Of a stretch of 21,231 bases of DNA, positions 313 through 20,758 are shown piece after piece. This DNA comes from a virus. A model generated the notes under the pieces. That model was not told the origin of the DNA, did not search any database, and worked only from the letters and a program-made list of their open reading frames with translations. Each line of letters begins with the position of its first letter. The stretch's first letter is position 1. A program made the translations under genes and the position numbers. Location of the stretch: positions 1 to 21,231 of IMG/VR virus record IMGVR_UViG_3300025133_000703. The stretch is one strand, 5' to 3'.

Positions 313-693
313 ATGGTTATTGGATACTCTGCAAAATTACCGCTAGCATATACCAAAGATGACGGCCCATATCTTTTAACAAAAGATTTAACAGAGAACA
401 CAAAACAAAATTTTAAAAATCTTGTTCTAACTAATCCGGGTGAGAGAGTCATGGAGCCGGATTTTGGAGTTGGCTTTACTCAACTCTTATTTGAGAATGC
501 AAACGAAGACACAGTAGAAGACTTAAAAGAAAGACTATTTATTCAAGTAAAGAAATATCTTCCATTTGTGGAGATTCAAACTGTGGAGACACAAGTAAGA
601 GAGAATACCGCATACCTCAGAGTGGATTATATAATCCCGGCTCTTTCTGTAAGTGAGACATTAGAGTTAGATATAGATAATAATTTTGGTTAG
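313..693 (+). CDS. gp25: Baseplate wedge protein, gp25/GPW family
   Basis: The 126-residue protein matches the GPW/gp25 family in length (T4 gp25 is about 132 residues) and layout. A short N-terminal stretch is followed by a helix around residues 26-38, then the family's hallmark core at residues 41-52, NPGERVMEPDFG, containing the E-R...P...F-G pattern (the EPR-type motif, here E44, R45, P49, F51, G52). A helix at about 64-80 and a beta-hairpin end follow. In the family, this protein sits in the inner baseplate, contacts the gp6-type wedge protein and templates sheath assembly. GAGGG at 301-305 lies seven bases before the ATG and fixes the start. The next gene encodes its expected partner, a gp6/J-type protein, which strongly supports the call. 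Confidence 0.93.
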   Translation: MVIGYSAKLPLAYTKDDGPYLLTKDLTENTKQNFKNLVLTNPGERVMEPDFGVGFTQLLFENANEDTVEDLKERLFIQVKKYLPFVEIQTVETQVRENTAYLRVDYIIPALSVSETLELDIDNNFG

Positions 694-704
694 GAAATTA
701 AAGA

Positions 705-2501
705 ATGCCAGACAAAAAGACAAAACCAGTTAGATACGCCAGCAAAGAGTTTGATACAATCAAGGATTCTTTGGTTGAATATGCAAAAACATATTATCCA
801 GACACATATAAGGATTTTACTGATGCGTCTTTTGGATCTTTAATGTTAGATACTGTTGCATATATTGGTGATATGCTATCTTTTTATGTGGACTATCAAT
901 CAAACGAATCGTTTATCGACAGCGCCATCGAAACTAAAAATTTATTAAAATTGGCAAAGCAGTTCGGCTATAAAAGGCCGCTGGAGTTTACCTCTACCGG
1001 CAAGTGTTCGTTCTATGTTCAGGTTCCAGCCACTACTGCTGGGCTTCCAGATACAGACTTAATACCAATTTTGAAAGAGGGGACAACGCTCACCTCGGCC
1101 GCCGGCACTTCTTTGATGCTTGTAGAAGATGTCGATTTTTCTAGAAGTGATTCCGAGGTTGTAGTGGCACAAACAAATACTGATGGAATTCCAACAAGCC
1201 ATGCCTATAAAGCATATGGCAACGTTATATCTGGCTTCGTAGAGACCGAGGTACTGTCTGTTGGCAGTTATCAGAAATTTTTAAAATTATCCCTAAAAGG
1301 AGAAAATATTACTGAAATTATTTCTGTGGTAGACAGCGAAGGTAATGAATATTTTGAAGTTCCATATTTATCACACAATATTGTCTATCAAGCAATTAGA
1401 AATCCAACACCAGCCGGGGAGGAGGATGCCCCATATATTATGAGAGAAAAGTTGGTAGCTAGAAGATTTATAATAGATGTTGATGAATTTGGGGTGACAT
1501 CTCTTCAATTCGGATATGGTTCGGAAAACAGTTTAAAAAACAATCAATATCCAGACCCCTCTAGCGTTGCTTTACAAAGATATGCTAGAAACTATTATTC
1601 AGACGATTCTTTTGACCCCTCTATTCTTTTAAAGACGGACAAATTTGGTGTTGTTCCGCCCTCTGGAGATCTGCTTGTCACTTATCGCAAAAACAATAAT
1701 TCTGTTGTAAATATTCCCGTTGGTTCGATTAATGCTATTGATTCTCCTATAGTGGGCTATGGTACAAATGACGTTCCTTCGTCAAGTGATCGTTTATTTA
1801 TAAACAATTCTCTTGATGTTGATAATGAAGAGGCTATTTTGGGTCAAATTGATGAGGCAAGGCAGGAAGAAATAAGAGTCCGAGCCATCGATGCCTATTC
1901 TTCACAGAACCGGGCCGTGACAAAACAAGATTATATTAGTCTGGCTTACAGAATGCCGTCAAAATTTGGAGCGATAAGAAGAGCAAACATCGTGCAAGAT
2001 AAGGACTCTTTTAAAAGAAACTTAAATATGTATGTCATATCAGAAGATATTGATGATAACTTAACAACGAGTAGCAGTACTATAAAAGAGAATTTAAAAA
2101 CTTGGTTATCTCAATATAAGATGATCAACGATACAATTGATATTCTCGATGGTCAAGTTATAAATTTTGGAATCAATTACAAAGTTTTAGGTAGCTTGGA
2201 CTCCACACAGACTGAAATTTTATCTGATTGTAATCGCGCATTAAAAAACATGTTTACAGATAAATTGCTTTTTGGTGAGCCGTTTTATATTTCAGATATT
2301 TATAGAACATTAAATGATTTAGACAAGGTTGTTGACACACAAGATATCCAAATAAAACAAAAAATAGGGACGAACTATAATACTGGAGATTTCGATGTAG
2401 AGGGAGCCACAACAGACGATGGCAGATTCATAATTGTGCCTGAAAATATTGTTTTAGAATTAAAGTTCCCAGATGAAGATATAGTTGGGGTGGTTGTATA
2501 A
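705..2501 (+). CDS. gp6: Baseplate wedge protein, gp6 / baseplate J-like
   Basis: This 598-residue protein has the two conserved blocks of gp6/baseplate-J proteins. Residues about 40-92 carry the N-terminal signature (GSLMLDTVAYIGDMLSFY, then NESF, a run of Ala/Thr/Asn/Leu positions and FGYKRP). Residues about 383-430 carry the C-terminal one (QEEIRVRAIDAYSSQNRAVT, then KQDY and the arginine-rich GAIRRANIV). The middle is a beta-rich domain typical of the family. Length is close to T4 gp6 (about 660). In contractile tails the protein forms the dimeric ring that clamps the baseplate core with gp25. AGGA at 692-695, overlapping the gp25 stop codon, lies nine bases before the ATG. The gene ends TAATG, sharing one base with the next start, which suggests translational coupling. 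It could equally be called gpJ-like, but the neighbourhood favours the T4-like name. Confidence 0.93.
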   Translation: MPDKKTKPVRYASKEFDTIKDSLVEYAKTYYPDTYKDFTDASFGSLMLDTVAYIGDMLSFYVDYQSNESFIDSAIETKNLLKLAKQFGYKRPLEFTSTGKCSFYVQVPATTAGLPDTDLIPILKEGTTLTSAAGTSLMLVEDVDFSRSDSEVVVAQTNTDGIPTSHAYKAYGNVISGFVETEVLSVGSYQKFLKLSLKGENITEIISVVDSEGNEYFEVPYLSHNIVYQAIRNPTPAGEEDAPYIMREKLVARRFIIDVDEFGVTSLQFGYGSENSLKNNQYPDPSSVALQRYARNYYSDDSFDPSILLKTDKFGVVPPSGDLLVTYRKNNNSVVNIPVGSINAIDSPIVGYGTNDVPSSSDRLFINNSLDVDNEEAILGQIDEARQEEIRVRAIDAYSSQNRAVTKQDYISLAYRMPSKFGAIRRANIVQDKDSFKRNLNMYVISEDIDDNLTTSSSTIKENLKTWLSQYKMINDTIDILDGQVINFGINYKVLGSLDSTQTEILSDCNRALKNMFTDKLLFGEPFYISDIYRTLNDLDKVVDTQDIQIKQKIGTNYNTGDFDVEGATTDDGRFIIVPENIVLELKFPDEDIVGVVV

Positions 2502-10800: not shown

Positions 10801-13800
10801 GCAAGAAACAGAGAAAATTATGTCTCTTTCTGGAGTAATGATGCTTTATCTGAAAGAACAGCGGCCTCAGTAGTTAATTCACAAGGTGTTACAATCGACG
10901 CCAGCCGATGGTTGATGGATGTTAGCTTGTCAGGATCGTCATATCACGCTGAAAAGTCTGGTGAGATAATGAGATATACTGGCTCGGTAGGCGCAACCGC
11001 TGAATCTCGTGCGAATAAGAGTGCAAGATATTCATTCTTTATGGGCGAGTGCCGCCCAAACAACTTGGTCCAGGCCCAAGCCTCTTCTAGTGCTTTTTAT
11101 ACATCATATGGTGCCTTTTCGACTGATGTTCGTATAATAGGACAGGATGAGACAATAATCCCAGAATTTACAGTTTCTGATTATGTAGGACCAATCGTAA
11201 AAAACCATAATTACGATTTTGCAGAAAGGTCAATTTATGCGTTTTCTTTGACGGGAAGTAAGACGATGACTTCTGCCAGTTTCTTGGAGACTTATGGTAA
11301 AACAGAAAACTTAACATATTTAAAAGAATTAAAAGAGTTTTATGGAGAGCCGACTGCGATTAGGCTTACATTTGATGTTACAAAGAAGTTGCTGCCAAAA
11401 GATGGTTTTTATCCCGTTCAAAGGACAAGACAATTAGCATCTCAGTTTTCTTCTTCTTATTCTAATTCTAGTTTGATTGATGACGTGGGCGAAGAATCTG
11501 CAGTCCCTGCCGGCACGCAAGCAACTTATTCAACAACTTTGATGCCATTTTGGGCGCCCGGGGTTGGGTACAATTCTATAAAAGCCGGCTTTGCTGTGGA
11601 GTTTCCGTACAAAGCTACCGCAGCCGGCCCGATCAGCGCAAGTATTGTGGATATGTTTGATTCTGCGGCTCCTTTTGAATCTATATTGGCGCCTTCTGAG
11701 TATGCTTCAACAATTTATCATATTGTTGATTCAGGTTCCAATGCCTATCCTCATGCTAGTTTTGGAGACCAAATTGATAGTACCGGGTCAGTTAACAAAA
11801 CCGATGGTGTCTATGAACTGATGGCCCATAACTTTTTTGCAGAGATTCCAGAATTCTTTTTAGATGGGCTGGCCACTTTTAAAAGCTCTCCACAGTCAGG
11901 CTGGGACTTTAGGGGTCCTTTTTCAGGTAGCGCCACCGGAATTCCAACTCACAAAAAATTCGCTATGGATATTGTGATAGAAAACCCTGCGAATTATTTG
12001 CAATACGGTCAACCAGCCGCGTATGGACCGTATCCCTATCTTAATCATGCCCCACCCGGCTGTTATAGCCAGCAAATCGGCTCTTTAGGCCCGGGCTGCC
12101 CAAATGTGGCAAACATTCAAGGGCTTGGCCCAAATAATAGTCGCGCCGCCTTTACGAAGGCGACGTTGGTCTTTGACACAGCCGACTTCTTAACTACTGA
12201 TTCCAGAGCCGGAACAACCTCTTTTACTTTGAAAGACATAATAGCAAACAGTACCATAACTCATGTCCATCAGCAGGGGGACTATGGTAGCGAAGTTGTT
12301 TTTATGACAAATACAGCTAGTTTAGATTTGTTTAATATCGACAAAGATAACCGGTGGGTAATTAAAAGTAAGTGGGAGTGTCCCACGCTTCAGTTCTCTG
12401 GTACGGATGTTGTTAGTTTTGGTACCCCGCCTGACTCAGAATTACAAACAACTAGAGGCATGTGGCACCAATATGGTAGCTTGGCGGGAAGTAATGATCG
12501 AGCCAGAGTTCATGTTAGATTAGAAGAAACATCATATGAGGATTCTTCATTAACCGGCTCTTTGCTTGAGGCTGTTGGGTTCGCTCCGGAGGCCCATGCA
12601 TTTGGTAGGATAAAAAATCAAAAGACCCTAGAAGAGGCCATTTGTGTTGTTCCTTTTTATATTGATTGTGAAACCGGGGAGGAAAAGTTTTTTGAGATTC
12701 CAATTAATATTTTTGAAAACAGATATAGTCAAGTTCGAACTGACCAAATAACAAAGGATTCTATTTCCGATATGATTAGGAAGATGGACAAATATGTTGT
12801 TCCCCCTCCATATGATTATGTTGCAACCCGAGATGATTCTAGAAAGGTATTATCAACCAAGGTTGATTTCGCACAAGCTGGTGTCGAAGCTCCATTTTCT
12901 ATGTACTTTTTTGAATTCTCAAGTAAATTAAGTCAACAAGATTTAGCAGATGTGTGGCAGGGAGTCATGCCATCGATAGCAACAACTGCAGATAAAGAGA
13001 CGGTTATATTAGAACATCCTATTGTTGATGGAGAATTGTTATCGCCATCAATCTTTAGTTATAATAATTTTAATTCGATTCCTGATAATATTAGGTGGAA
13101 AATCTTCAAAGTTAAAAAGAGAGCTTCTTATGACTATTATAAGATGGTAGAAAAACAAACTGGCGTTGCAACATATAAAAGGTCTAGATCAGATAGATTT
13201 TCATTTAATTGGCCTTATGATTATTGTAGTTTGGTTGAGCTTGGTAAGATGGAGGTTGAGTTCGAAGTTCAAAACGATAGTCCAAACAGAATTAGGGATA
13301 TTAGGGGCGGCGGCTACATAACTCCGGAAGAGGCAGGTCGCGCATCTATAAATTTGGGAGTTCCTTTAACAATTTCTAGGAAGTCAGAAGAGCCGATAGG
13401 GCCGATGGAAACTACTCGTGCCAGAGAATGCCCTCACGGTTTCTTTGAATTCGGAGGCAAGTGTATGCCCATTGTTGATATCCCCGCCCCCACCGTGCGC
13501 TGTAATGATCCGGTTGCAATCAACTATCTACAACCAGAACCGTGTCAATACCGAGAGCCCGATGAACCACCGCCGTTCACGTCGCCCACAGGTACGGGCA
13601 CAACGGCCACCGGCACAACGGCCACCGGCACAACAGGTACCAGCACAACGGCCACCGGTACAACGGCCACCAGCACAACAGGTACCGGCACAACAGGTAC
13701 GGGCACAACGGACACCAGCACAACGGACACCAGCACAACAGGTACCGGCACAACAGACACCAGCACAACGGCCACCGGTACAACGGACACCAGCACAACG

Positions 13801-13878
13801 GCCACCGGTACAACGGACACCAGCACAACTGGCACCAGCACGACGGACACCAGCACGACGGACACAGGGACTTATTAA
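4888..13878 (+). CDS. Giant 2996-residue tail/baseplate structural protein (LamG, gpI-like segment, Thr-rich repeat tail)
   Basis: One uninterrupted frame spans almost 9 kb. Regions in order: a basic, Ser/Lys-rich N-terminus (1-40). A LamG/ConA-like domain at about 165-370 ('GVTFEFWMKK', 'SSWHHYAMAFS', 'GEFYVDGYF', 'LSGSLDEVRLWKTRR', 'LSLYYKFNEG'). A helical segment at about 450-590 with 'MYDMLPQWISDED' and 'NKTKGTEKAFRNLFRCFGV', which resembles the KGT...L...G motif of P2 gpI-type tail proteins. A second ConA-like stretch at about 748-915 ('AWTFAVRVKP', 'SRVWFDYLKTGELQSHA'). A helical block to about 1115, then a proline-rich linker at about 1160-1215 ending near 'FWWRSRARR'. A long beta-rich body follows. 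The end holds a small cysteine segment (Cys2848, 2859, 2872, 2887) and 19 Thr-rich pentapeptides at 2901-2995. The P2-like order gp25, J, I supports a baseplate-wedge role, probably reaching the tail exterior. I recognise the protein type from marine T4-like phages but know no assigned function. No clear ribosome-binding site precedes the ATG. Confidence 0.93.
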   Translation: MGTKSFFTKQKSQKPSLRGQEKSTTQGITSSVESIDYIKEYERDKINFLPELDFSDPAKFVKYGSAKDYYADLVSKVASSYPYDGSLTERLKFKNELVAIQRYEFDNNYPRSTGYADFSDSTYNETKNSFTVDTITFALGESSTPHYILTDNYSKNLVYNTASSQVGSIELDFSEGVTFEFWMKKAAFPAPAQTQNEVVFSISNEQKDLFQITTDVAASSNLIACFAQAATDANLPQFVYEFDTDLDTIADSSWHHYAMAFSTNSAGYVGEFYVDGYFQEKQYYTKASPFLVLTGTLDATIAASSLSSLIGDGKLSGSLDEVRLWKTRRDAKQIGENYFFDVGGGGNTDKTKVNKYNPLDLSLYYKFNEGITGTSSLDSIVLDYSGRLTDGVWVGYASGSSRQTGSAITLSEVATEVGSPIIYGSHSDVLSYKSEKETSGSAYDASNISSMYDMLPQWISDEDSENGLLIRKLIQIMSSYLDTLHAQITAVSTLQDGSYVSGSSAKPNPFSKRNLLSYGFEIPDVFIDPGVIEEIYFKDEKRLYEDKLFNLKNLIFQNIFNNLNFLNKTKGTEKAFRNLFRCFGVDDELVRLNMYSDNQEYEFREGFESAQSKRNVVDFSGYNESQNREGVIYTFADTTKVLGETGDYGYIPSASNLYIPLTIENQIYFPKFVDFPNGHVVSRLPRASLFGVHSASAITGITEIPSPDSYFKVYADTNLNNKTKFVLETNITSVGTLTSSYYEDVYNNNAWTFAVRVKPREYPFADKVTGSSNFDFEFYGVNYSSGIKVHEFSASAEVSTASAAGDISSFLTGSNKRLYVGADRTNITGAINYQTNVRALSSRVWFDYLKTGELQSHAKDVETFGRLNPYENSFIFEAGVSGNYIPKIETLALHWDFENITGSDSSGKFTIQDTTSGSSTTVYNKYGAENYYNLSGRNYSGQGFGFPASSTDVVDFLFVDTARQQLPENLYNSDLIEVREQDDVLFTKESRPSKYYFAAEISLYDTISRNILGFFASIEDFNNLVGEPVNMYRPNYKSVEKLRALFFENIQNSPDLEKYVNLYKWVDGALDSVLANMIPASAKVSDKVRSVVESHLLERSKYRHKYLHVKQYSKEDEIKSTNFWWPNLPEVADVDPTFTPRDFPTTTTIDAPPLRNLGNMENIVPEEIRKRKVSLKKTGLRPIRPAGPDPSPIESLRSPPNPSGDPLPGEQSSNEFWWRSRARRNPDGVLATGDPGKDRTRVAIQISQFPNPSASSNSPLSFDMTVEKSISTNTGYSGENRKNYFPSSFKLGISITTSEGLTISQSAMPDNNKGQPYYDYSSGTIDETYGGKRRVPLKITDAGNSIVLTNQKYLPFDVLSASSANSRYQDVLFAQEISASIETAHRDFVIEGTPIQSPWAEENVGGWMYRHGNRFVTSTLDRKEGYALSVEGNQITLNNPRLFRGDFQTEVPIGYYLRDTPAKSAVNIKNISGSNANAGNYLRDYEIIQTTGRKENNRYYVKSEGNTGSVSAATGGILFRTGDDDGPDGLGTYAYKDFEVLDRATGSNDFVIVSRFSAPGGPEVASFSFLDVEAAEYSVYNNLNYRNLGVRLANRSLLSRHTLSGGYDSVILEPSASYYKPQRNGIYHITGTAAQWPTPIWDNSYVGYGIPRTDVQYSWVKDSWVLQKRGYPNLRRLGALQMFTGSKWTGGKGQYDLSDISSPIFAPIYGFEYSSYLYTSSYGSERNDFPSGVVYVSGSEATYTLSTQVTAPVSLASTNVFNPFNGMNLVVFGSVDLENNLFTTGTVDYAGSALSAGEYFQFNASVFGPGDPWPQSAYNVLNAFLLNNGGPYRHASFKQTRGGDHRVARVFRKKNLYRNSLDVLRDDKEALIRAGQRYTITQSAVTSKFKSVLQYIDDVTGTIEYSFGNLYDYFAKTYNTTQDVIEDLNQEMGAPQVDIYDSDFYKFSKKFNTIRYKEVVYPREENEYRDLARNRENYVSFWSNDALSERTAASVVNSQGVTIDASRWLMDVSLSGSSYHAEKSGEIMRYTGSVGATAESRANKSARYSFFMGECRPNNLVQAQASSSAFYTSYGAFSTDVRIIGQDETIIPEFTVSDYVGPIVKNHNYDFAERSIYAFSLTGSKTMTSASFLETYGKTENLTYLKELKEFYGEPTAIRLTFDVTKKLLPKDGFYPVQRTRQLASQFSSSYSNSSLIDDVGEESAVPAGTQATYSTTLMPFWAPGVGYNSIKAGFAVEFPYKATAAGPISASIVDMFDSAAPFESILAPSEYASTIYHIVDSGSNAYPHASFGDQIDSTGSVNKTDGVYELMAHNFFAEIPEFFLDGLATFKSSPQSGWDFRGPFSGSATGIPTHKKFAMDIVIENPANYLQYGQPAAYGPYPYLNHAPPGCYSQQIGSLGPGCPNVANIQGLGPNNSRAAFTKATLVFDTADFLTTDSRAGTTSFTLKDIIANSTITHVHQQGDYGSEVVFMTNTASLDLFNIDKDNRWVIKSKWECPTLQFSGTDVVSFGTPPDSELQTTRGMWHQYGSLAGSNDRARVHVRLEETSYEDSSLTGSLLEAVGFAPEAHAFGRIKNQKTLEEAICVVPFYIDCETGEEKFFEIPINIFENRYSQVRTDQITKDSISDMIRKMDKYVVPPPYDYVATRDDSRKVLSTKVDFAQAGVEAPFSMYFFEFSSKLSQQDLADVWQGVMPSIATTADKETVILEHPIVDGELLSPSIFSYNNFNSIPDNIRWKIFKVKKRASYDYYKMVEKQTGVATYKRSRSDRFSFNWPYDYCSLVELGKMEVEFEVQNDSPNRIRDIRGGGYITPEEAGRASINLGVPLTISRKSEEPIGPMETTRARECPHGFFEFGGKCMPIVDIPAPTVRCNDPVAINYLQPEPCQYREPDEPPPFTSPTGTGTTATGTTATGTTGTSTTATGTTATSTTGTGTTGTGTTDTSTTDTSTTGTGTTDTSTTATGTTDTSTTATGTTDTSTTGTSTTDTSTTDTGTY
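13588..13872 (+). repeat. Thr-rich 15-bp coding minisatellite (19 units)
   Basis: Nineteen in-frame 15-base units encode pentapeptides of the form T-[G/A/D]-T-[G/S]-T at the very C-terminus of the giant structural protein, followed only by Tyr and the stop. Position 2 alternates Gly, Ala and Asp; position 4 alternates Gly and Ser. Most units differ by only a few bases (for example ACAACGGCCACCGGC), and 13761-13790 is repeated exactly at 13791-13820, a perfect 30-base tandem duplication, so the array has expanded recently. The Ser/Thr density would suit a flexible or glycosylated stalk, but that is inference. The array also keeps other frames on both strands free of stops, which produces spurious open frames. 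Confidence 0.95.
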
Positions 13879-13923: not shown

Positions 13924-14829
13924 ATGACATTTTTTAATAAAAAAGAGGAGGTTCTAGAAGTTATACTAACAAGGGTTGGCCGTGAAAAGCTCGCCACCGG
14001 CCAGTTTATTCCCACTCATTATGAATTTTTGGATGAAGACATCATATATGATATAAAATATGTTACTACCGGAAATGCAATTTTTGAAGAACAAAATGAA
14101 ATAAAGACAAGGATAAAAGACCAGATTATGTTTAGGGCGCAGACGGCAAAACAGGCCGCTATTAGTACTGGCGATCAGTTCTTCGCGTATGCCGAGGACA
14201 AACCTACTGGCCCGAAATCAGAAAATCGATTAATAGAAAGTTTGGGAACTTTCACTCCCTATTCAGAATATCGCCCTGCTTGGCAGATCGAAGCCGTAGA
14301 TGGGAGCTTGTTTACTGGGTCTGGTGAAATAGACTACACTCCGGTTGAAGTTTATAAAGGCGGCAGCGTCAATCCATCCTATGAAAAAATACCTCAACTA
14401 TCTTTAAGTTGCAGCTATAATTATAATTTTTATGTTGAAGCCCCAAAAGATAATCCTGAAAGTACATTTTTTTCTAATTTGTTAGAAAACCCATTTGTTG
14501 ATTCCACGGATGTATTTAAGGATCCAATTGACGACTCTTTTGTATTGTTTAAAAAGGATTTTAATGATTTTACGATTAGTGTAAAGGAAGAAAATGTTTT
14601 ATCATCCTCTAGCCAGTTTGAACTAGAGGTCTTCAAATATGAATATTCAAATGATTATAACAACGTGGATTTAAAAAGACTATACTTTGAGGCGGATGAT
14701 ATTACTCATGAGTCTGTTGAATGGTATCTGAATGTTTCAATTGATTCAGCGGTAGAATCTGAGAGAGAAGGGTTTGTTTTCGTTGATGAACCACTTCCCA
14801 TAAATGACATAGACGATGAGTGCAAATAA
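13924..14829 (+). CDS. Virion structural protein, 'LT..GR..LA.G' family (first copy)
   Basis: The 301-residue protein begins with about 47 residues clearly related to the gene at 19799: F-x(8)-L-x(2)-ILT-R-V-GREKLATG, then F-x(2)-TH-x(2)-F-x-DEDIIY. Beyond this the two copies diverge: this one has an acidic, aromatic-rich C-terminal half (Asp-Phe and Asp-Asp clusters near residues 196-240, ending DIDDECK). I recognise the N-terminal signature from structural genes of marine T4-like phages, but know no assigned role; the shared segment may be a docking module to a common partner. GGGAAG nine bases before the ATG supports the start. The stop overlaps the next start by one base (TAATG). No signal peptide or membrane helix is visible. 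Confidence 0.92.
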   Translation: MTFFNKKEEVLEVILTRVGREKLATGQFIPTHYEFLDEDIIYDIKYVTTGNAIFEEQNEIKTRIKDQIMFRAQTAKQAAISTGDQFFAYAEDKPTGPKSENRLIESLGTFTPYSEYRPAWQIEAVDGSLFTGSGEIDYTPVEVYKGGSVNPSYEKIPQLSLSCSYNYNFYVEAPKDNPESTFFSNLLENPFVDSTDVFKDPIDDSFVLFKKDFNDFTISVKEENVLSSSSQFELEVFKYEYSNDYNNVDLKRLYFEADDITHESVEWYLNVSIDSAVESEREGFVFVDEPLPINDIDDECK

Positions 14830-16598: not shown

Positions 16599-19500
16599 AT
16601 GGTGGAGATAAATTTAAAACAGTTGGATAACGATCTAAAAGATATTAAAAAACAGTTGTATGGTTCAGCCACAGAACCATCCCCGGCTAATGCTGGTCTA
16701 GTCCCTGCATCCAAAGATACGGGCGGCGCCTCTCCCGGTTCACAAGGCCCGGGAGTGTCTGACCCTGCTGATCAGCCAACAGACGTAAAAATAATTAAAA
16801 CAAAGCCTAAAATTCATAACGCACAAAATTATAACTTAGGACGATTAAGATATATAGGTGATGTTTCTAAGTACCTTGAAGACCCAATCGCCTTTATGGC
16901 GAATCAAGTGTGGAATTACGATTTAGAAAAACCTAGTGATTTGGTTTACGGATATGAACTGCCAACTCCCATTTTTAACAAAATTAATGAAAAAACGGCA
17001 GAGTTCCTTGATCTCACACTCGTCGACATCTTCAACGACGATTCGGTCTTCAAGGTAAATGGCAAATACACAGAGATTAATGACAAGGTTTGCCTCTATT
17101 TCGTAGAAAGAGTGCGTAAATATCTGCAGGATGAATTTACAGAAGCAACCATACAAAAGATTTTTCCAAAGGGCCCCTTTATATTTAGCGTCGGCAATTT
17201 CAGCCTTGCTCTGTTTTGGATAAATCAAATTTTTGCAAAAAATATAAAAATTGATGAAAAATCCATAACATTACTCGGTGTAAAATTCCAAGTTCCGTCA
17301 CTCAATATTTCAGACCCAACAAAAGCTGGCACCCTTTCACAAAGAGAAGAAAAAACAAAGGCTATAATCTTTGCTTCCTTCTTTTTTCAACATTTAAGGT
17401 TTTCCAGCAAAGAAAGCAAAGAAAAGACACCCAGCAAAGAAAGCAAAAAAAAGACATGGGACTTCTTTGACGACGACTTTGACACAGCCAAAGAAAGCAA
17501 AGAAAAGACACCCAGCAAAGAAAGCAAAGAAAAGACATTTGTTGACGTTTATGATGACCTCAAACAATCATTTAGCAAATACAAAAATGCGAACGATGTT
17601 CTTGTACAGGATTTAAAAAGACTTTCATCTAACTTACAAGATTATTTAAGTGGAAAAACGCTGGTTAACACTAATAACTATCATTTAAAAAATTATCTCA
17701 CAGGCATAAAAACACAAAGTGTGGTAGGCTTAAATGAAATAACAAACGATGATATAAAAGAAAATACATATGCTCGCTTGGTGGCGGCTCAAGCCCTAGA
17801 GAAATGTAAGAACACTAAATCAGAAAAAGATGAGACTTCCTTGAGGTTGTTTTACAAAGAGGGAAACGATGCAATATTAAATGGTGTATATCCCCCCGGA
17901 GGCTTGGGGTGCGATAAAAATACTGTTTTATGGCCGCCCGCAAAACGTATGTTACTTGATCACATTTCATTACAGCAACCGCGCTATAATAAAACTTTAC
18001 CATATTATAATTTAATTGATTCTTCAGTAAAGAGTGTTATTCCGAAAGAGAATGATGTTGCTATAGTGAACTCTGCCCCCGCTGGCCTAACTTTGTCGGA
18101 CAAAAAAACAATCAAACAGTTTAGAACTTTGCTGGCCCTCGACCGCTTTGGAGGGATTGAAACCTCTGCAAACGGCAACCCCATCCCTGACGAGGCTGGT
18201 AAAAAGGTCTTGACTGATAAATCTTTAATGTTTCGACCAGCACCTAATACTTCTCCGTTTAAAGCAGAGAGTTGGTTTCTTTACTGGAGCTTTACCGGGC
18301 TGCACGCCGGATTTGACGCAGGCTACTGGGCGCCCGATGAGTATTTTAATAAAATTATGACACTGTTAAAATATAAAAATTATTCGCCACGCAACGGAAT
18401 GTTCTCGGCCGGCTATGTTTTAGCAAAGTCACGAATTACAGATGACGTCAGCGGCGGCATAAAGCAAAGAATCTATATTAGTGATCCACAATTTTCACCA
18501 GATACTCTTAACATGTTGTCGCCAACCGGCCCTTTTTCTTTTTATGATTCACAAATAAAATATGGTGAAAAATATAGCTATCAATTAAATCAATTGGTTG
18601 CTTTTACCGAGGGTAAGTATAGCTATTTGACTTTCGTCGGGCTTGAATCAAATAAAGACACGGCGCCGTCCAATCCGGATAGTCTTTTCCACTTCAGGTT
18701 TATTCCCTCTCCGATAGAATATAGTAGCAAAATAGAAGAGATTCCTATTTCCCCTAATCAGTTAGTAGCCCCATTCGTAGATATTCCACCACACGCTACA
18801 TTTTTGGAAGTTCATCCTTTGCGAGGCGTCAACAATAAAGTGTTTATGCACTTTCAAGACATGTCTTTTTACGCGGACCCTCAAAAAAGAAATATTCCTA
18901 GAGCGTTTTGGCAAGAAGGGTGGCAGAGTTCAAGAGATTATTATATAGAGAGTGAGAGTCTCACAGAGCATCTTAATGAGGATAATCTAGACCCAAAGTA
19001 TATTAAGGACGACGACGTTTGGTTTAAAAATCAGCCATTACAAAAAATAATTATCTATAAAGTTGAAGGCGAGAAACCAACGAATGAGTTGGATTTTAAG
19101 GAAATACTTGAAGAGGTCGATGTTTTGGGTGGCAATCGTTTAAAACTAGTGTCAATAAAACCCAACGTTCAGTACTATTTTGCCACTAGGTCCGTTTCTG
19201 TTACTGGACTAAAGTCATATTTGAGCCAAGTGTATTCTGTCAAAATCGTGGACGATGGTGGCACAGTTTTCCCCATTGTTGATGTTGTAGAACTTGAATC
19301 TGCACCTATAAAAAGAAAAGAGATTAAGGAGTTTACATCTCTATTTAGAATTGAGCCAGCTTTGTTACAACAAGCGCCTAATCCGGCTAAAAATAATGTT
19401 GGGTATTTAAACCCAAGTACATTTTCCGACCAAAATGAAACAAAGCCACTTTATAAAATTCGGGTAACTTCCAAGAAAACTGGCAGAAAAGTTGATTTTA

Positions 19501-19751
19501 ATTTGATTTATAAGTTAAAAAAATCAACAAATGATGATAATCTGGGTGATATAAGCATCGCAGAGACAAGAGAAGAAAATATTTTGATGTCGTATCCTTC
19601 TGCCCCGGCTCAATGTAAGAAGAATTGTTCGGACACGTTTAAAAAGTGCAGCGACGAATGTGAAAAGGATATAGACACTCCTTTAGTCGCTTGTCTTGAT
19701 AAATGCGTACATACTTTAAATTCATGCAAACAGAATTGCTCTGATAAATAA
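16599..19751 (+). CDS. Large structural protein with KESK repeats, Fn3-like region and eight-cysteine C-terminus
   Basis: The 1050-residue protein starts with an amphipathic Lys/Asp helix (1-20), then a disordered Pro/Gly/Ser/Ala-rich linker (22-62). Residues about 75-265 look globular. Residues about 269-320 hold four copies of [S/A]KESK[E/K]KT in two pairs, each pair followed by an acidic-aromatic segment (WDFFDDDFDT, FVDVYDDL). The middle has Trp/Tyr/Gly-rich stretches ('WSFTGLHAGFDAGYWAPDEY', about 565-585). About 805-900 resembles a fibronectin-III-type domain ('IIIYKVEGEKP', 'QYYFATRSVSVTGLKS', 'VYSVKIVDDGG'). The last 45 residues contain eight cysteines at 1006, 1010, 1017, 1021, 1032, 1036, 1043 and 1047. 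I know no assigned function for this protein; domain style and neighbours indicate a virion structural or host-contact role. AAGGG about seven bases before the ATG supports the start. Confidence 0.92.
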   Translation: MVEINLKQLDNDLKDIKKQLYGSATEPSPANAGLVPASKDTGGASPGSQGPGVSDPADQPTDVKIIKTKPKIHNAQNYNLGRLRYIGDVSKYLEDPIAFMANQVWNYDLEKPSDLVYGYELPTPIFNKINEKTAEFLDLTLVDIFNDDSVFKVNGKYTEINDKVCLYFVERVRKYLQDEFTEATIQKIFPKGPFIFSVGNFSLALFWINQIFAKNIKIDEKSITLLGVKFQVPSLNISDPTKAGTLSQREEKTKAIIFASFFFQHLRFSSKESKEKTPSKESKKKTWDFFDDDFDTAKESKEKTPSKESKEKTFVDVYDDLKQSFSKYKNANDVLVQDLKRLSSNLQDYLSGKTLVNTNNYHLKNYLTGIKTQSVVGLNEITNDDIKENTYARLVAAQALEKCKNTKSEKDETSLRLFYKEGNDAILNGVYPPGGLGCDKNTVLWPPAKRMLLDHISLQQPRYNKTLPYYNLIDSSVKSVIPKENDVAIVNSAPAGLTLSDKKTIKQFRTLLALDRFGGIETSANGNPIPDEAGKKVLTDKSLMFRPAPNTSPFKAESWFLYWSFTGLHAGFDAGYWAPDEYFNKIMTLLKYKNYSPRNGMFSAGYVLAKSRITDDVSGGIKQRIYISDPQFSPDTLNMLSPTGPFSFYDSQIKYGEKYSYQLNQLVAFTEGKYSYLTFVGLESNKDTAPSNPDSLFHFRFIPSPIEYSSKIEEIPISPNQLVAPFVDIPPHATFLEVHPLRGVNNKVFMHFQDMSFYADPQKRNIPRAFWQEGWQSSRDYYIESESLTEHLNEDNLDPKYIKDDDVWFKNQPLQKIIIYKVEGEKPTNELDFKEILEEVDVLGGNRLKLVSIKPNVQYYFATRSVSVTGLKSYLSQVYSVKIVDDGGTVFPIVDVVELESAPIKRKEIKEFTSLFRIEPALLQQAPNPAKNNVGYLNPSTFSDQNETKPLYKIRVTSKKTGRKVDFNLIYKLKKSTNDDNLGDISIAETREENILMSYPSAPAQCKKNCSDTFKKCSDECEKDIDTPLVACLDKCVHTLNSCKQNCSDK
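17406..17537 (+). repeat. Direct repeats encoding KESKEKT units
   Basis: A 49-base segment at 17408-17456 recurs at 17489-17537, exactly 81 bases (27 codons) later, with one visible mismatch (A for G in the second half of the first copy). Each copy itself contains two roughly 27-base units built on GCAAAGAAAGCAAAGAAAAG, so four related units are present. In frame they give [S/A]KESK[E/K]KT twice, an acidic-aromatic spacer, and the same again. The preserved frame and near identity point to recent slippage or duplication within a tolerated linker. Confidence 0.9.
19743..19750 (+). promoter_or_regulatory. Candidate phage late promoter element
   Basis: GATAAATA fits the NATAAATA pattern known for late promoters of T4-like cyanophages (T4 itself uses TATAAATA). 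It overlaps the stop codon of the 1050-residue gene and lies 48 bases before the start at 19799, at the longest gap in the window. The same eight-base pattern occurs inside the giant gene (8197-8204), so chance is a real alternative in this AT-rich DNA. Confidence 0.3.
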
Positions 19752-19798: not shown

Positions 19799-20758
19799 AT
19801 GTCGTTTCTAGATAACACAGGTGATATTATACTTGATGCCGTTTTAACGCACATAGGTAGAAAAAAGTTAGCAGAGGGTAGGGGGTCATTTAGAGTTACA
19901 CACTTTACTTTGGGTGATGATGAAATAAATTATGCACTATATGATACGTCTGTAGCTACCGCTAGAAGAGATTTGGAGATTTTGCAAACGCCAATTTTAG
20001 AAGCGCGTACAGACTCAACGGCCGGTTCAAAATACAGATTACTGACTTTAGAAGATAGGGATATATTATTCTTACCAGTAGCCCGCCTTAATACAAAAAC
20101 CGGCGGTGGCCAGTTTACTGGGTTCCCCTACGCGTCTTCTGCAGAAAATGGTAGCGACACAAATCAGTTTGTTGTAGTTGCAAACAGAGCAACTGCAGAA
20201 GCATACATAGGGCCAAATGCAGAAAAACCAACACAGTTCCCCGATGGCTTTATTAACGGAACATCCGGACGCACAGCCAAGGACAACCGCATTATAATTG
20301 ATCAAGGTTTGGATACAACATCTATGTCTTATCTGAACCCTCTTCCCTCTCAGTTAAAAGAGACGGCCTATCTTATTAGTATCGACAACAGAGTTTTAGT
20401 GCCTGTTGATATAGACGGAACTGATCTTCCTGTAAGTTATACTGATACCAATCACATATCCACTTATTTGGCCGCCGGCCGACAAGCTGGCCTTGGTTCC
20501 ACCCCCGGCGGCGGGAATGCAACGCAGGGAGATGCCGCCATCGATGGTCCCCGGGGCCCACGATTTCATTTGGGCATTCGGCCAGCAATTGATGTTGTAA
20601 CACCAACTAAATTATATACACAGATCGGAAATTCCACTACTGGCTACGGAACTAGATCGCTTAGTGTTGATTACATTACTACAACTGTAAGGGTCACAGG
20701 CCTAGATCTTGGAATAACTACAGATTTCCAAGTTAAGGTTATTCGTAAAAACAATTAG
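19799..20758 (+). CDS. Virion structural protein, 'LT..GR..LA.G' family (second copy)
   Basis: The 319-residue protein opens with the signature shared with the gene at 13924: 'MSFLDNTGDIILDAVLTHIG', then RKKLAEGRGSF, THF and GDDEINYALYD. This is the more canonical copy; closely similar openings are familiar to me from structural genes of marine T4-like phages. After the shared block comes a region rich in Gly, Ala, Thr and Asn ('GRQAGLGSTPGGGNATQGD' near 230-250) and a beta-rich C-terminus that closes with alternating hydrophobic residues ('TTTVRVTGLDLGITTDFQVK'). No cysteine cluster, membrane segment or enzyme motif is visible. It has the strongest ribosome-binding site in the window. A role as an abundant tail, neck or fibre-attachment component is plausible but inferred. 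Confidence 0.93.
   Translation: MSFLDNTGDIILDAVLTHIGRKKLAEGRGSFRVTHFTLGDDEINYALYDTSVATARRDLEILQTPILEARTDSTAGSKYRLLTLEDRDILFLPVARLNTKTGGGQFTGFPYASSAENGSDTNQFVVVANRATAEAYIGPNAEKPTQFPDGFINGTSGRTAKDNRIIIDQGLDTTSMSYLNPLPSQLKETAYLISIDNRVLVPVDIDGTDLPVSYTDTNHISTYLAAGRQAGLGSTPGGGNATQGDAAIDGPRGPRFHLGIRPAIDVVTPTKLYTQIGNSTTGYGTRSLSVDYITTTVRVTGLDLGITTDFQVKVIRKNN

What the first reader, a model, noticed from the sequence alone, without database searches (positions are those of the whole stretch)
19614..19748. Twofold CX3C-X6-CX3C cysteine array at the C-terminus of a phage structural protein
The last 45 residues contain eight cysteines with exact internal symmetry: CX3C-X6-CX3C, a 10-residue spacer, then CX3C-X6-CX3C again. 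CX3C pairs on helices are the hallmark of disulfide-clamped helical hairpins (as in small Tim chaperones) and of some antimicrobial-type peptides; metal binding is an alternative. The rest of the protein does not look cysteine-rich, so this is a discrete module, perhaps formed or loaded after lysis, or recently acquired. I know of no described phage tail module of this form.
Basis: partly seen in the sequence, partly recalled or inferred. Interest (0 to 1): 0.72.

Follow-up and report, generated by a model that had tools for sequence, protein, structure and literature searches.

The report
Cysteine-zipped helical hairpin on phage protein
The last 45 residues of a marine phage tail or baseplate protein carry eight cysteines spaced exactly as needed to zip two short helices together with four disulfide bonds; the same spacing recurs in a family of small exported bacterial proteins that has no entry in the libraries searched, so the phage has probably fixed a very stable bacterial-type knob to the end of a virion protein.

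Summary
ORF 16599-19751 (1050 aa) ends in CX3C-X6-CX3C-X10-CX3C-X6-CX3C (19614-19739), holding 8 of its 11 cysteines. The ORF lies in a baseplate cluster (gp25- and gp6-like genes upstream), and its C-terminal half is predicted to be fibronectin-III-like. None of 22 homologues whose C-termini I read has the array. Their core ends where it begins and they carry other tails or none, so it is an accessory C-terminal module.

AlphaFold2 on the tail alone gives an antiparallel helical hairpin (pLDDT about 91). In an ideal two-helix model, the 3/6/3 spacing lets all four mirror cysteine pairs reach disulfide distance; 5 of 66 symmetric spacings did so.

The same array is the core of a small exported bacterial protein family, unnamed in Pfam and NCBIfam. 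It was found in 29 of 145 genomes of one Myxococcota order at E<=1e-3. All 30 arrays recovered keep 3/6/3 arms; only the loop varies (10, 11, 13, 14). The closest solved structures are four-disulfide neurotoxin B-IV and the alpha-hairpinins.

Best reading: a disulfide-laddered hairpin knob at the tip of a tail or baseplate protein. The fold is well supported. Oxidation after lysis and a role in attachment are inferred.

The parts
16599..19751 (+). 1050-aa virion (tail or baseplate) protein carrying the module at its C-terminus
   Evidence: homologues in 27 of 49 related phage records
18396..19508 (+). conserved C-terminal core of the protein, predicted tandem fibronectin-III-like beta domains (about residues 600-970), ending in the motif YKIRVTSKKTGRKVDFN
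   Evidence: AF2 model m24ce77f8b412; Foldseek matches to FN3 tandems and phage tail proteins; alignment A1
19614..19739 (+). eight-cysteine array CX3C-X6-CX3C-X10-CX3C-X6-CX3C
19608..19667 (+). predicted helix 1 with the first two CX3C motifs (19614-19628, 19647-19661)
   Evidence: AF2 single-sequence model, helix at residues 14-33 of 60
19668..19682 (+). predicted turn between the helices (DIDTP)
19683..19745 (+). predicted helix 2 with the second two CX3C motifs (19692-19706, 19725-19739)
   Evidence: AF2 single-sequence model, helix at residues 39-59 of 60
19799..20758 (+). next gene (319 aa), syntenic with relatives, showing the locus is intact downstream
313..693 (+). gp25-like baseplate wedge gene, places the cluster in a tail/baseplate module
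   Evidence: PHROGs phrog_261 E 9e-18
705..2501 (+). gp6-like baseplate wedge gene, used to find relatives
   Evidence: PHROGs phrog_10646 E 4e-22

Best explanation
The tail is an autonomous mini-domain: two antiparallel alpha-helices joined by a short turn and zipped by a four-rung ladder of disulfides (C1-C8, C2-C7, C3-C6, C4-C5), which takes the place of a hydrophobic core. It sits after a short linker at the C-terminal tip of a fibronectin-III-rich tail or baseplate protein, where related phages carry other extensions or none. It is of the same kind as, and possibly captured from, an unnamed family of small exported bacterial proteins. It most likely works as a protease- and denaturation-resistant surface knob for contacts outside the cell (attachment to host surface or matrix), with the disulfides closing when the virion meets the oxidising environment on or after lysis. 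Shown: the array, its absence in homologues, its recurrence with rigid arms and a variable loop in bacterial proteins. Predicted: the hairpin fold and pairing. Inferred: oxidation state, surface exposure and role in attachment.
For: Exact array. AF2 on the isolated tail: two helices, pLDDT about 91; the same two helices in the full-length model. Ideal-helix modelling: mirror pairing of 3/6/3 arms places all four Cb pairs at 3.8 A with near-antiparallel axes; of 24 pairings only mirror and its parallel counterpart fit, and a 10-residue turn permits only the antiparallel one; 5 of 66 symmetric arm spacings fit. Family: in-frame arrays in bacterial proteins found by a DNA pattern that fixed X10, then by profile in Myxococcota; 30 arrays in 29 loci all have 3/6/3 arms with loops of 10, 11, 13 or 14 (21, 3, 2, 4 cases), most after a signal-peptide-like N-terminus (24 of 30 by a crude script). 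Closest solved sequences are disulfide helical hairpins: neurotoxin B-IV (1vib, E 0.016) and walnut vicilin Jug r 2 (7lve, E 0.45). Similarity to the bacterial arms exceeds Cys-fixed shuffles modestly: mean score p 0.024, best score p 0.002, profile score reached by 68 of 2000. C-terminal tails of homologues differ or are absent.
Against: No measurement of disulfides. Virions assemble in a reducing cytoplasm, so oxidation must come late. The hairpin geometry also offers two four-cysteine sites that could hold metal. Fold matches to solved hairpins do not stand above other helical pairs. The viral array is a singleton in the data searched. Homology to the bacterial family rests mainly on the cysteines, and the shuffle tests were made after the fact. 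No direct evidence of surface exposure or host binding.
Confidence: 0.62

Rival explanations
1. Metal-binding hairpin: the two CX3C pairs at each end of the hairpin form two four-cysteine sites that bind zinc or copper(I) in the host cytoplasm and stay metallated in the virion.
For: CX3C on helices is a usual thiolate ligand spacing (established knowledge), the cytoplasm is reducing during assembly, and the modelled cysteine stripe (0, 40, 20, 60 degrees) also clusters thiols in fours.
Against: Bacterial relatives look exported, where disulfides form. The nearest solved analogues with this spacing are disulfide-bonded (PMC11722136). No histidine is conserved in the family and no copper-storage or zinc-finger family matched.
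Confidence: 0.2
2. Intermolecular crosslinker: the cysteines bond to other virion proteins or to copies of the same protein and lock the baseplate or fibre after lysis.
For: Some homologues end in a single terminal cysteine (YSSGKC in L244-L246, DEEEC in L248), so thiols at this C-terminus recur in the family.
Against: An even set of eight cysteines with mirror spacing that satisfies itself within one chain is not needed for crosslinking, and bacterial relatives are small stand-alone proteins.
Confidence: 0.08
3. Substrate of a radical-SAM peptide-modifying system, with thioether rather than disulfide links.
For: Sub-threshold matches of two bacterial relatives to TIGR04117 and of the tail to TIGR04114, Cxxx-repeat radical-SAM targets.
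Against: Scores are far below the curated cut-offs (16-20 against 50 bits; 7.4 against 20), the array is not a continuous Cxxx repeat, and the relatives look Sec-exported.
Confidence: 0.03
4. Chance convergence: a cysteine-rich phage tail that merely resembles the bacterial family and has no defined fold.
For: Singleton in viruses; weak similarity outside cysteines.
Against: Exact mirror spacing (about 2e-5), confident hairpin model without an alignment, one of few zipping spacings.
Confidence: 0.05

Closest known systems
Neurotoxin B-IV of the nemertean Cerebratulus lacteus (PDB 1vib; Pfam PF07822 Toxin_13)
   Same: Two antiparallel helices crosslinked by four disulfides (PMC6410017, PMC11722136). 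Cysteine spacing 3/6/2/10/3/6/3 as read from the profile alignment, which covers 44 of 46 positions.
   Different: One residue shorter in the second CX3C; stand-alone secreted venom peptide of an animal; E 0.016 driven mainly by cysteines. No claim of common descent or shared activity.
Plant alpha-hairpinins and vicilin-buried peptides (6o3q, 7lve, 9q1l)
   Same: Helix-loop-helix with CX3C on each helix and cross-helix Cys1-Cys4/Cys2-Cys3 disulfides (PMC7191063); VBP-8 aligns at rmsd 1.6 over 38 columns.
   Different: Four cysteines and two rungs, not eight and four; plant proteins; fold match no better than background.
Vanabin2 (1vfi)
   [quoted passage not shown] Z 4.1.
   Different: More cysteines and helices, different spacing, vanadium binding.
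Unnamed small exported Myxococcota proteins (L276, L326-L332, L337-L366)
   Same: Identical arms 3/6/3 and most often the same 10-residue loop; array close to the C-terminus.
   Different: Stand-alone exported miniproteins rather than a C-terminal tail on a virion protein; 20-32% identity over 46 residues including the eight cysteines.

Membership tests
Exported bacterial eight-cysteine hairpin family (unnamed; defined here) | arms CX3C-X6-CX3C twice with a 9-14 residue loop | tested here: met
   exact spacing, loop 10
Exported bacterial eight-cysteine hairpin family (unnamed; defined here) | sequence similarity beyond the cysteines | tested here: inconclusive
   best-match p 0.002, mean p 0.024, profile score reached by 68 of 2000 Cys-fixed shuffles; post hoc
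Exported bacterial eight-cysteine hairpin family (unnamed; defined here) | N-terminal export signal on a small protein | tested here: not met
   the phage copy is the C-terminal tail of a 1050-aa protein
alpha-hairpinins | Cys motif of four cysteines, Xn-C-X3-C-Xn-C-X3-C-Xn, forming two disulfides | tested here: not met
   eight cysteines in a doubled motif (definition from PMC7191063)
alpha-hairpinins | antiparallel helix-loop-helix | tested here: met
   predicted model only
Toxin_13 / neurotoxin B-IV (PF07822) | match to the Pfam family | tested here: inconclusive
   the window tail itself has no Pfam match; one bacterial member of A3 matches at E 0.0068
Toxin_13 / neurotoxin B-IV (PF07822) | four disulfides across a helical hairpin | not testable with these tools
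   needs mass spectrometry or structure
Small Tim chaperones (twin CX3C) | four cysteines in two CX3C motifs | tested here: not met
   eight cysteines in four CX3C motifs
Radical-SAM Cxxx target peptides (TIGR04114/TIGR04117) | score above curated cut-off | tested here: not met
   7.4 against 20 bits for the tail with TIGR04114; 16.5 and 19.6 against 50 for bacterial relatives with TIGR04117

The most novel reading that the evidence does not exclude
A widespread, unrecognised bacterial exported mini-domain, a four-rung disulfide-laddered helical hairpin that needs no hydrophobic core, has been taken up by a marine phage as an exchangeable tip on a tail protein and is locked only after the virion leaves the reducing host cell.
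Probability: 0.35. Interest if true: 0.68.

Novelty: new variant of a known kind. Interest (0 to 1): 0.52.

Why it matters
Disulfide-laddered helical hairpins are known from animal venoms, plant defence peptides and ascidian vanabins. I found no described bacterial family or phage virion module of this form in the libraries and papers searched. If right, it names a tiny, very stable protein unit in bacterial exports, shows a phage using it at the variable C-terminus of a tail protein, and raises a testable question of how disulfide-dependent virion parts mature when phages assemble in a reducing cytoplasm.

Tried and rejected
Direct peptide searches of IMG/VR with the tail and the whole protein found no relatives. 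tblastn of the whole protein and of the tail against GenBank phages found nothing; the one plasmid match (Shinella, E 7) has a different cysteine pattern and no annotation. Restricted patterns, including one with a variable loop, gave no clean in-frame viral example. Half-motifs in related phage records look like chance or non-coding frames by eye. Exported-family profile hits in Pseudomonadota (1 of 398) and Chloroflexota (1 of 201) were only the seed genomes. Fold searches gave only weak matches for the hairpin, so no fold homology is claimed from them. I considered small Tims, copper-storage proteins and DUF326 and set them aside on cysteine count, on spacing recalled from memory, or for lack of any Pfam match.

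Full report
Observation. ORF 16599-19751 (+) encodes 1050 residues and ends in CKKNCSDTFKKCSDECEKDIDTPLVACLDKCVHTLNSCKQNCSDK. The spacing is 3/6/3/10/3/6/3. Eight of the protein's eleven cysteines lie in these 42 residues. The half-motif occurs twice in the window against 0.06 expected by shuffling, and symmetry of this kind is met by about 2 in 100,000 placements of eight cysteines in that span. Spacing is mirror-symmetric about the centre as well as two-fold repeated.

Setting. Upstream genes are baseplate wedge proteins of gp25 and gp6 type. The gp6-like protein led to 80 related IMG/VR loci, and homologues of the 1050-aa protein were found in 27 of 49 such records. A full-length AlphaFold2 model on 20 sequences is poor overall (mean pLDDT 53), but residues 600-970 form beta domains whose Foldseek matches are fibronectin-III tandems and phage tail proteins including tip attachment protein J. 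Placement at a tail tip or baseplate is therefore an inference from synteny and fold.

The module is accessory. The conserved core ends with a strand motif like FKIRLTSKKTGRKVDFN, and BLAST matches stop at about residue 1000-1005. In 22 homologues read to the C-terminus none has the array. Two close ones (L233, L252) stop after the core, L235 has about 80 more residues with two cysteines, and L232 and L234 have about 250 to 330 more residues with a shared CC...CxxC...C set. GC3 of the tail (0.356) equals that of the rest of the gene (0.352), so nothing in composition marks a recent import. The next gene is syntenic in relatives, so this is not an assembly join.

Fold. AlphaFold2 on the last 60 residues without an alignment gives helices 14-33 and 39-59 with pLDDT about 91 in the three middle ten-residue blocks, and the full-length model shows the same pair. 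On a helix the four cysteines of each arm lie at 0, 40, 20 and 60 degrees, one stripe. With ideal rigid helices, all four mirror pairs reach 3.8 A between Cb atoms at once in near-antiparallel helices. Of 24 possible pairings only this one and its parallel twin fit, and 5 of 66 symmetric arm spacings fit. This is my own coarse model, not a structure.

Relatives of the array. A genome scan for the eight-Cys DNA pattern with X10 fixed, after translation, left clean in-frame cases in Deltaproteobacteria, Myxococcales, a Woeseiaceae and a Thermomicrobiales genome, several of them a signal-peptide-like segment followed by the array at the very C-terminus. A profile of these found more in Myxococcota and in 29 of 145 genomes of one order at E<=1e-3, or 51 at E<=0.05. 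Among 30 arrays recovered by a regular expression that allowed spacing to vary, all arms are 3/6/3, and loops are 10 (21 cases), 11 (3), 13 (2) and 14 (4). One of the 30 loci gave no array under that expression. 24 of 30 have a signal-peptide-like N-terminus by a crude script. One Thermomicrobiales locus holds three such genes with loops 9, 10 and 9. Four of these proteins match no Pfam or NCBIfam model above its cut-off. Rigid arms and a variable loop are what a helical hairpin with cross-helix bonds predicts.

Is the phage tail a member? Cysteine spacing is identical. Beyond cysteines the similarity is modest: the best member shares 8 of 24 arm residues, p 0.002 for the best score, 0.024 for the mean, and 68 of 2000 Cys-fixed shuffles reach the tail's profile score. 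Descent from this family is plausible but not shown; convergence on one of few zipping geometries remains possible.

Known analogues. The profile's best PDB sequence matches are neurotoxin B-IV (1vib, E 0.016) and the walnut vicilin hairpin Jug r 2 (7lve, E 0.45). B-IV is two helices crosslinked by four disulfides (PMC6410017, PMC11722136); alpha-hairpinins have the four-cysteine two-rung version (PMC7191063); [quoted passage not shown] Fold comparison includes VBP-8, Jug r 2, vanabin2 and B-IV, but none stands above unrelated helical pairs, so these are analogues, not proven relatives.

Mechanism. Shown: array, accessory position, recurrence with rigid arms. Predicted: hairpin and pairing. 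Inferred: disulfides rather than metal (bacterial relatives look exported, closest solved analogues are disulfide-bonded), closure outside the reducing cytoplasm, and a role as a tough surface knob in attachment because it sits at the variable end of a fibronectin-III tail protein. Metal binding is the chief rival and cannot be excluded from sequence.

Limits. The viral example is thus a singleton in what was searched, not proven unique.

Noticed in passing
L232 and L234 (homologues of window 16599-19751): These homologues carry a different 250-330 residue C-terminal extension with a shared CC...CxxC...C cysteine set, so this protein's C-terminus seems to be a site of exchange for cysteine-bearing modules.
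   Followed up: partly
L244, L245, L246, L248: Other homologues end in a lone terminal cysteine (YSSGKC in three, DEEEC in one).
   Followed up: no
window 13386-13878; L256 first ORF: The 2996-aa neighbour ends in a cysteine-bearing stretch (CPHGFFEFGGKC...CNDPVAINYLQPEPC) followed by a long TGT/TST repeat; the ORF at the corresponding place in L256 has 14 cysteines in about 200 residues. More than one virion protein of this group may have a cysteine-rich C-terminus.
   Followed up: no
window 13924-14829 and 19799-20758: The 301-aa and 319-aa proteins share a similar N-terminal segment (MTFFNKKEEVLEVILTRVGREKLATG / MSFLDNTGDIILDAVLTHIGRKKLAEG), also present in relatives.
   Followed up: no
L367, L370: In two Myxococcota genomes the exported hairpin gene follows genes whose N-termini look like TadE/TadG pilus-locus proteins (RGAASVE..., RGQALVL...). 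The same look was seen near L368 and L369, but the proteins sent to Pfam gave no match, so this is by eye only.
   Followed up: partly
L112, L119, L181, L194, L317: Viral contigs encode long cysteine-rich repeats (CTGTC/CSGSC or CQxxC units) in open frames of about 240-550 residues, possibly disulfide-rich fibres.
   Followed up: no
L282, L289, L291, L301-L303, L309: Myxococcota genomes encode long proteins of tandem cysteine repeats (CGNGxCEPxCGExxxxCPxDC units) with more than 100 to over 200 cysteines.
   Followed up: no
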